Shown here piece after piece: positions 48,893 to 49,389 of a stretch of DNA of 64,000 bases; position 1 is the first letter of the stretch, and each line of letters begins with the position of its first letter. A program made the translations under genes and the position numbers. Location of the stretch: positions 62,001-126,000 of the forward strand of contig DUMA01000017.1 of the NCBI GenBank assembly GCA_012840135.1. Direction: 5' to 3'. The DNA comes from Thermoanaerobacterales bacterium (GTDB lineage Bacteria; Bacillota; Thermosediminibacteria; Thermosediminibacterales; Tepidanaerobacteraceae). The notes beneath the pieces are model-generated. The model ran no database searches and was not told where the DNA came from. It saw only the letters and a program-made list of their open reading frames with translations.

Positions 48893-48940
48893 AAAAAGCC
48901 ATGATTGCCCTTACTTATAAAAGGGCCTCCATGGCCTTTT
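48893..48940 (-). terminator. Bidirectional-looking terminator hairpin upstream of MFS gene
   Basis: GCCATG...CATGGC enclosing GCCCTT...AAGGGC, flanked by AAAAA and TTTT. Confidence 0.75.
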
Positions 48941-48959
48941 AAATGTAAATTTGATAAAA

Positions 48960-49319
48960 CATATAAAAAGCCACGAATCTTTTGCGACCCGTGACAATTT
49001 TATAATTGCTTTTGATTTAAGAAGATATTTCATCAATGGCGCTTGCCGTTAACTTAAACGCCTTAACTTACAATTCCGGTTACATTAACTTGATCGGTTG
49101 AATGTAACGCTAAGCGGGTTGCTGGTAAGTAAAATCTTGCTCGCAGGCCGCCTTATCGATATATTTATTTTTAGCATTACTTTATTTGCAGGATTGGCGA
49201 AAAGTATGCCGACTTTGATACCGCAATCCGATACTGCCGAATTATTCGCCATCAACATATTTTGCGGCCTCCGTTCTTAGCAAGATTTTATATTGTAAAC
49301 TCAAAAAATTTCGTCAAGC
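48960..49319 (-). ncRNA. Candidate structured RNA / regulatory leader (novel)
   Basis: Promoter TTGACA-N17-TATAGT at 49326-49354; nested stems AAAATCTTGCT/AGCAAGATTTT + AGGCCGC/GCGGCCT, ACTTAC/GTAAGT + GTTACATT/AATGTAAC, GGCGAA/TTCGCC; ends in GTCACG..CGTGGC-TTTTT. Confidence 0.6.
49085..49258 (-). CDS. Possible 57-aa small ORF inside structured RNA
   Basis: GGAGG 9 nt before ATG; MLMANNSAVSDCGIKVGILFANPANKVMLKINISIRRPASKILLTSNPLSVTFNRSS*; below the 60-aa cutoff of the ORF track. Confidence 0.3.
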   Translation of the reverse strand: MLMANNSAVSDCGIKVGILFANPANKVMLKINISIRRPASKILLTSNPLSVTFNRSS

Positions 49320-49325
49320 AAAAAT

Positions 49326-49354
49326 ACTATACCACCTGTTGTAAATTTTGTCAA
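49326..49354 (-). promoter_or_regulatory. Sigma-A-type promoter
   Basis: Minus strand TTGACA-AAATTTACAACAGGTGG-TATAGT (17-nt spacer). Confidence 0.8.
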
Positions 49355-49371
49355 TAACTCTTCACCAAGTT

Positions 49372-49389
49372 AAAAGGGCCGATGGCCCA
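49372..49389 (-). terminator. Terminator-like hairpin downstream of AAA-ATPase-like gene
   Basis: Minus strand GGGCC-atc-GGCCC-TTTTAA. Confidence 0.6.

What the first reader, a model, noticed from the sequence alone, without database searches (positions are those of the whole stretch)
48893..49389. Promoter- and terminator-bounded, highly structured RNA upstream of an MFS transporter
Read on the minus strand: terminator hairpin of the preceding gene (49372-49389), a consensus promoter (TTGACA-N17-TATAGT), then ~360 nt dense in complementary arms, then a hairpin with U5 (48965-48995), a second terminator hairpin (48893-48940), and then the MFS ORF start (48779). Seen stems: AAAATCTTGCT (49131-49141)/AGCAAGATTTT (49279-49289), 11 bp, enclosing AGGCCGC (49145-49151)/GCGGCCT (49264-49270), 7 bp; ACTTAC/GTAAGT enclosing GTTACATT/AATGTAAC; GGCG/CGCC. 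Inside the large loop, GGCGAA/TTCGCC and GGATTG/CAATCC are arranged in crossing order, a possible pseudoknot. It matches no riboswitch family I recognise. It could be a free-standing ncRNA or an attenuator leader for the MFS gene.
Basis: partly seen in the sequence, partly recalled or inferred. Interest (0 to 1): 0.82.

Follow-up and report, generated by a model that had tools for sequence, protein, structure and literature searches.

The report
Ribosome-sensing attenuator of an efflux pump
The RNA ahead of this drug-pump-like gene appears to be an on/off switch that lets transcription into the gene only when a ribosome stalls near the start of a short upstream reading frame, as known antibiotic-induced switches do; this particular RNA family seems undescribed, although switches of this kind are well known.

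Summary
The sequence features are real. The function is best explained as a leader-peptide transcription attenuator, not a free-standing ncRNA or riboswitch. On the minus strand: promoter, GGAGG ribosome site with a 57-codon leader ORF (49258-49085), two terminators (T1, T2), then an LmrP-like MFS gene. The same segment 2 can instead pair with the 5' arm of T1 (segment 3), which gives anti-antiterminator, antiterminator and terminator. I found the same layout upstream of MFS relatives (about 50-94% identical) in the sister species and in Desulfosporosinus and other Bacillota. Across 18 leaders, both alternative pairings are stronger in native than in swapped combinations (p about 1e-5 and 6e-5; one per cluster 2e-4 and 6e-4). 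The reading frame is kept through segment 2 in 17 leaders; the peptide sequence is not. No Rfam match; no description found in the searched literature. The likely trigger, a ribosome-targeting drug, is inferred. A T1-to-T2 relay is possible but not supported by covariation. It is a new RNA family of a known kind (bmrB, vmlR, rli80, mefE, ermK).

The parts
49372..49389 (-). terminator hairpin of the preceding AAA-ATPase/PD-(D/E)XK gene; separates it from the leader transcript
   Evidence: GGGCCATCGGCCC + TTTT
49326..49354 (-). promoter TTGACA-N17-TATAGT with upstream TG
   Evidence: 11/12 match; conserved in sister species G001
49279..49289 (-). 5' strand of the lower stem (AAAATCTTGCT) extending the anti-antiterminator
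   Evidence: pairs with 49131-49141; two compensatory changes against G001 (AAAATCCTGT/ACAGGATTT)
49264..49272 (-). GGAGGCCGC: ribosome-binding site of the leader ORF; AGGCCGC (49270-49264) = segment 1
49085..49258 (-). leader ORF, 57 codons, spacing GGAGG-9-ATG; contains segment 2
   Evidence: frame kept through segment 2 in 17 of 18 leaders
49140..49152 (-). segment 2, GGCGGCCTGCGAG: pairs either with segment 1 (anti-antiterminator) or with segment 3 (antiterminator)
   Evidence: best partner of both segments in the window leader and in 17 of 18 leaders; swap test
49131..49141 (-). 3' strand of the lower stem (AGCAAGATTTT)
48965..48995 (-). terminator T1 (segments 3:4), GTCACGGGTCGCAAAAGATTCGTGGC + TTTTT; segment 3 = 48995-48984
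   Evidence: conserved in family, covariation by swap test p=3e-4
48893..48940 (-). terminator T2 (segments 5:6), AAAAGGCCATGG...TCATGGCTTTTTG
   Evidence: -23.4 kcal/mol; conserved in family, swap test p=0.009
47514..48779 (-). MFS drug-efflux-type transporter, LmrP-like, the regulated gene
   Evidence: PF07690 1.5e-54; best solved relative LmrP 6t1z 1.8e-16

Best explanation
The region is the 5' leader of the MFS gene and works as a ribosome-mediated transcription attenuator. When the leader ORF is not being translated, its ribosome-binding site (segment 1) pairs with segment 2 inside the ORF, so segment 3 is free to form terminator T1 and transcription stops. When ribosomes translate the ORF freely, they pass over segment 2 and T1 again forms. 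When a ribosome stalls at or just after the start codon, it covers segment 1 but not segment 2. Segment 2 then captures segment 3, T1 cannot form, and RNA polymerase goes on towards the pump gene. The likely inducers are ribosome-targeting drugs that the pump exports. The layout, the alternative pairings and their covariation are shown here. The switching, the stalling step, the drug trigger and how T2 is overcome are inferred.
For: The same layout (GGAGG site, ORF, segment 2, T1, mostly T2, MFS) stands upstream of homologous MFS genes in the sister species and in Desulfosporosinus and other Bacillota lineages. In 17 of 18 leaders the best partner windows of the ribosome site and of the T1 5' arm coincide within 5 nt (segments 1 and 3 resemble each other, so this is not independent evidence alone). 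Pairing is stronger than in dinucleotide-shuffled middles (Fisher 1e-10 and 5e-10; relatives counted separately). Native partners beat swapped ones: 1:2 p=1e-5, 2:3 p=6e-5; one per cluster 1.8e-4 and 6.3e-4. Paired cells 97/98 and 92/98, with two-sided changes in both helices. The ORF is open through segment 2 in all leaders except L036; chance product over 11 representatives 2e-7. In the window, an RNA ending before the T1 3' arm forms 1:2 when free (8.0 expected pairs, 2:3 none) and 2:3 when the early-ribosome region is blocked (8.3 pairs). The pump is LmrP-like. The logic matches proven leaders: vmlR, rli80/hflXr, bmrB, mef(E)L.
Against: No transcript, termination or induction data. At equilibrium T1 wins over 2:3 once fully transcribed in most leaders, the window included, so the switch must act kinetically. 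In several relatives 1:2 does not clearly dominate 2:3 in the unblocked snapshot. The window's leader ORF is longer (57 codons) than most (22-41). Leader peptide sequences are not conserved (window against G001: 8 synonymous, 41 non-synonymous codon differences), so no stalling motif supports a particular drug. Without L034, L036 and L047 the swap tests fall to p=0.03 and 0.07.
Confidence: 0.85

Rival explanations
1. A metabolite- or drug-binding riboswitch controls T1 directly, without a ribosome.
For: Dense folding, two terminators upstream of a transporter gene, alternative pairings.
Against: The stretch between segments 1 and 2 is only about 45-60 nt in most relatives and has no conserved letters apart from the start codon; no aptamer-like core; no Rfam match; a ribosome site and open frame are kept in 17 of 18 leaders.
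Confidence: 0.06
2. A leader-peptide attenuator that responds to starvation for a particular amino acid (trp-type) rather than to a drug.
For: Same architecture would serve.
Against: No run of one codon is shared among the leader peptides; the controlled gene is an efflux-type MFS related to LmrP, not a biosynthetic or synthetase gene.
Confidence: 0.06
3. A free-standing small RNA, about 360 nt, whose job is in trans; the position upstream of the MFS gene is incidental.
For: Own promoter and terminators would give a discrete RNA.
Against: The element keeps its place directly upstream of homologous MFS genes in distant genera while sequence between the helices changes freely; the covarying helices form a termination switch; single copy in its genome at the model's sensitivity.
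Confidence: 0.03

Closest known systems
vmlR leader, Bacillus subtilis (PMC9226507)
   Same: uORF; anti-antiterminator, antiterminator and terminator; drug stalling near initiation; uORF sequence tolerant of change
   Different: three-codon uORF with its ribosome site unpaired; controls an ABC-F protein; one terminator plus a hairpin over the gene's own ribosome site
rli80/hflXr leader, Listeria (PMC6310831) and uORFC-6-1 motif (PMC8632094)
   Same: uORF overlapping an anti-antiterminator, then antiterminator and terminator, inducible by lincomycin
   Different: 14-codon ORF with an RLR stalling motif; controls HflXr; no sequence relation seen
bmrB/bmrCD leader, Bacillus subtilis (PMC4191407)
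   Same: long leader ORF (53 codons, window 57) before a multidrug transporter; ribosome-targeted drugs induce read-through
   Different: terminator lies inside the leader ORF; ABC transporter
mef(E)/mel leader of Mega and related elements (PMC4335068); erm(K)
   Same: leader peptide attenuation of transcription before an MFS pump; erm(K) has two adjacent terminators, as here
   Different: eight-codon MRLR peptide specific for macrolides; antiterminator repeat overlaps the terminator and includes its U tract
LmrP (PDB 6t1z)
   Same: MFS multidrug exporter, closest solved relative of the controlled protein
   Different: only distantly similar (E 1.8e-16); substrates of the window protein unknown

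Membership tests
ribosome-mediated transcription attenuator (bmrB/vmlR/rli80 kind) | short ORF with ribosome-binding site in the leader | tested here: met
   49258-49085, GGAGG spacing 9; 17 of 18 leaders
ribosome-mediated transcription attenuator (bmrB/vmlR/rli80 kind) | intrinsic terminator upstream of the regulated gene | tested here: met
   T1 48995-48965 and T2 48940-48893; T1 and T2 arms covary
ribosome-mediated transcription attenuator (bmrB/vmlR/rli80 kind) | mutually exclusive antiterminator and anti-antiterminator | tested here: met
   segment 2 pairs with 1 or 3, covariation in both
ribosome-mediated transcription attenuator (bmrB/vmlR/rli80 kind) | induction by stalled ribosomes / antibiotics in cells | not testable with these tools
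   needs RNA and reporter experiments
RLR/MRLR-type macrolide leader peptides | RLR motif in leader peptide | tested here: not met
   none of the 17 peptides has RLR
any Rfam release 15 family | score above the family's gathering threshold | tested here: not met
   window, nine relatives and L038 leader, none
riboswitch | conserved aptamer core | tested here: not met
   no conserved core between segments 1 and 2
LmrP-like MFS multidrug exporters | MFS fold and sequence similarity to LmrP | tested here: met
   function not tested

The most novel reading that the evidence does not exclude
A two-step relay: when segment 2 captures the T1 5' arm, the freed T1 3' arm pairs with the T2 5' arm (window -17.4, sister species -20.0 kcal/mol), so one stalled ribosome disarms two terminators in turn. 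Because the peptide is not conserved, the sensor would read blocked initiation or early elongation in general rather than one stalling sequence.
Probability: 0.25. Interest if true: 0.55.

Novelty: new member of a known kind. Interest (0 to 1): 0.42.

Why it matters
It adds a probably undescribed, conserved RNA family to the drug-inducible attenuators, in environmental anaerobes where such switches are hardly studied, and points to an uncharacterised LmrP-like pump family whose substrates might be found through its inducers. The conserved frame with a free peptide sequence makes it a useful case for asking whether such leaders sense blocked initiation rather than specific nascent peptides.

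Tried and rejected
DNA searches of plasmids, phages and family genomes with the window leader gave only chance matches outside the sister species. Apparent third-codon-position bias between window and sister species near segment 2 suggested a conserved coding gene; over the whole ORF the peptide is not conserved. A covariance model (R1) from nine relatives finds the leaders before MFS genes; the other hits (L066-L068, L070-L072, L075, L076, L078-L080) looked like chance on inspection. The model aligns the window poorly (17.9 bits, E=0.11) because of its long insert, so membership of the window rests on the sister species, gene context and helices. The T1-T2 relay (4:5) is complementary but shows no covariation (p=0.26) and does not form appreciably at equilibrium except in L047. 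Leaderless relatives: the Clostridium MFS genes (L026, L028, L030, L032) and G143 (L046) have no hit.

Full report
What was checked. The promoter scores 11 of 12 and is the best in the 4 kb scanned. The leader folds better than all 100 shuffles, z = -3.76. No Rfam family matches the leader in the window or in nine relatives at gathering score; window matches up to E=5 are chance-level, and the L038 leader has none up to E=1. The leader is single copy in its genome by DNA search; the covariance model found no second leader there, though it also misses the window's own.

Relatives. The only other genome held of the same genus has a collinear leader (74% and 82% identity in the matching blocks) before a 94% identical MFS gene. 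Family-level DNA matches were chance. Searching instead with the MFS protein gave relatives at 34-61% identity in named genomes and more in whole-genome sets. Reading upstream of those genes showed the same arrangement in Desulfosporosinus (L027, L029, L035, L038), in Clostridia and Bacillota MAGs (L031, L033, L034, L036) and in further unnamed species (L047, L048, L051, L052, L055, L057-L061, L073). Some loci are the same genome under two ids (for example L027/L054, L038/L053, L035/L057, L031/L047, L029/L056). Clostridium relatives such as L026, L028, L030 and L032 lack it; they serve as negative controls for the model.

Anatomy. Each complete leader has a GGAGG-type site, then an ATG or GTG, then an ORF of 22-57 codons (L036 is the exception: its AUG is followed at once by a stop). 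Segment 2, typically GCGGCCU, lies inside the ORF. T1 follows (degenerate in L034), then in most cases T2, then the MFS gene. T1 typically has a 5' arm and loop reading GUCACGGGUCGU; in segment 3 the letters GGGUCGU are complementary to segment 2. Segment 1, AGGYCGY of the ribosome site, is complementary to the same segment 2. This is the textbook anti-antiterminator (1:2), antiterminator (2:3), terminator (3:4) set.

Tests. The best partner windows of segments 1 and 3 coincide within 5 nt in 17 of 18 leaders, the exception being L059. Because segments 1 and 3 resemble each other, this coincidence is not independent proof; the stronger tests follow. Energies beat dinucleotide shuffles of the middle. 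Swapping partners among species weakens both helices, which is the covariation test that tolerates register shifts. With one sequence per cluster p is 1.8e-4 and 6.3e-4. Leaving out the three most divergent leaders lowers this to 0.03 and 0.07, so part of the signal comes from L034, L036 and L047. Pair by pair, in 14 leaders with a regular register, 97 of 98 and 92 of 98 cells are standard pairs, with two-sided changes at three positions of 1:2 and three of 3:2. T1 and T2 stems covary too.

Ribosome. The frame stays open through segment 2 in all 17 leaders with an ORF; shuffles of 11 representatives give a joint chance of about 2e-7. Peptide sequences differ widely, even between the two species of this genus. 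This favours a sensor of blocked initiation or early elongation, as in vmlR, where changed uORF sequences still work, over a specific stalling peptide. A folding snapshot taken before the T1 3' arm is made shows a clean switch in the window: 1:2 when free, 2:3 when the start region is covered, neither when segment 2 is passed. At full length T1 is thermodynamically preferred in most leaders, so timing is essential.

Second terminator. T2 is conserved. The T1 3' arm is complementary to the T2 5' arm, most clearly in G001, L060, L048 and the window. That would let one event remove both terminators, but the swap test gives p = 0.26, so it stays a hypothesis. erm(K) also has two adjacent terminators (reported in PMC4335068).

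Comparison. The mechanism is the one shown for bmrB/bmrCD, rli80/hflXr, vmlR and mef(E). I found no paper in the searched library describing this leader; most subscription papers are not in that library. The controlled protein is an MFS exporter whose nearest solved relative is LmrP. That LmrP exports lincosamides, macrolides, streptogramins and tetracyclines is my own knowledge, not tested here.

Verdict. A real, conserved leader-peptide transcription attenuator of an MFS pump; new as an RNA family as far as could be checked, ordinary as a kind. Function in cells is untested.

Noticed in passing
14217-14300 (-): c-di-GMP-I riboswitch (66.7 bits) directly upstream of two very large genes, 10457-14176 (1239 aa, Big_5) and 4293-10460 (2055 aa, several TIG domains); suggests c-di-GMP control of large surface proteins.
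   Followed up: partly
59356-59674 (-): T-box leader (103.8 bits) upstream of the trp gene cluster at about 52910-59317.
   Followed up: no
49520-51268 (-); L004 about 6240-6410: AAA-ATPase-like/PD-(D/E)XK gene in the window; in the sister species only about the last 130 bases remain between the EamA transporter gene and the attenuator promoter.
   Followed up: partly
48779-48893: About 100 extra bases between T2 and the MFS start compared with the sister species, where T2 lies next to the gene's ribosome site.
   Followed up: no
L069 about 1490-1690 (reverse): A leader with GGAGGCUGU, a 27-codon ORF, the complementary site CACAGCCU and a different terminator upstream of a GNAT acetyltransferase gene; may be another attenuator of the same logic.
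   Followed up: partly
L036 3800-3940: In this relative the leader AUG is followed at once by UAA (start-stop ORF) while both alternative pairings are kept.
   Followed up: partly
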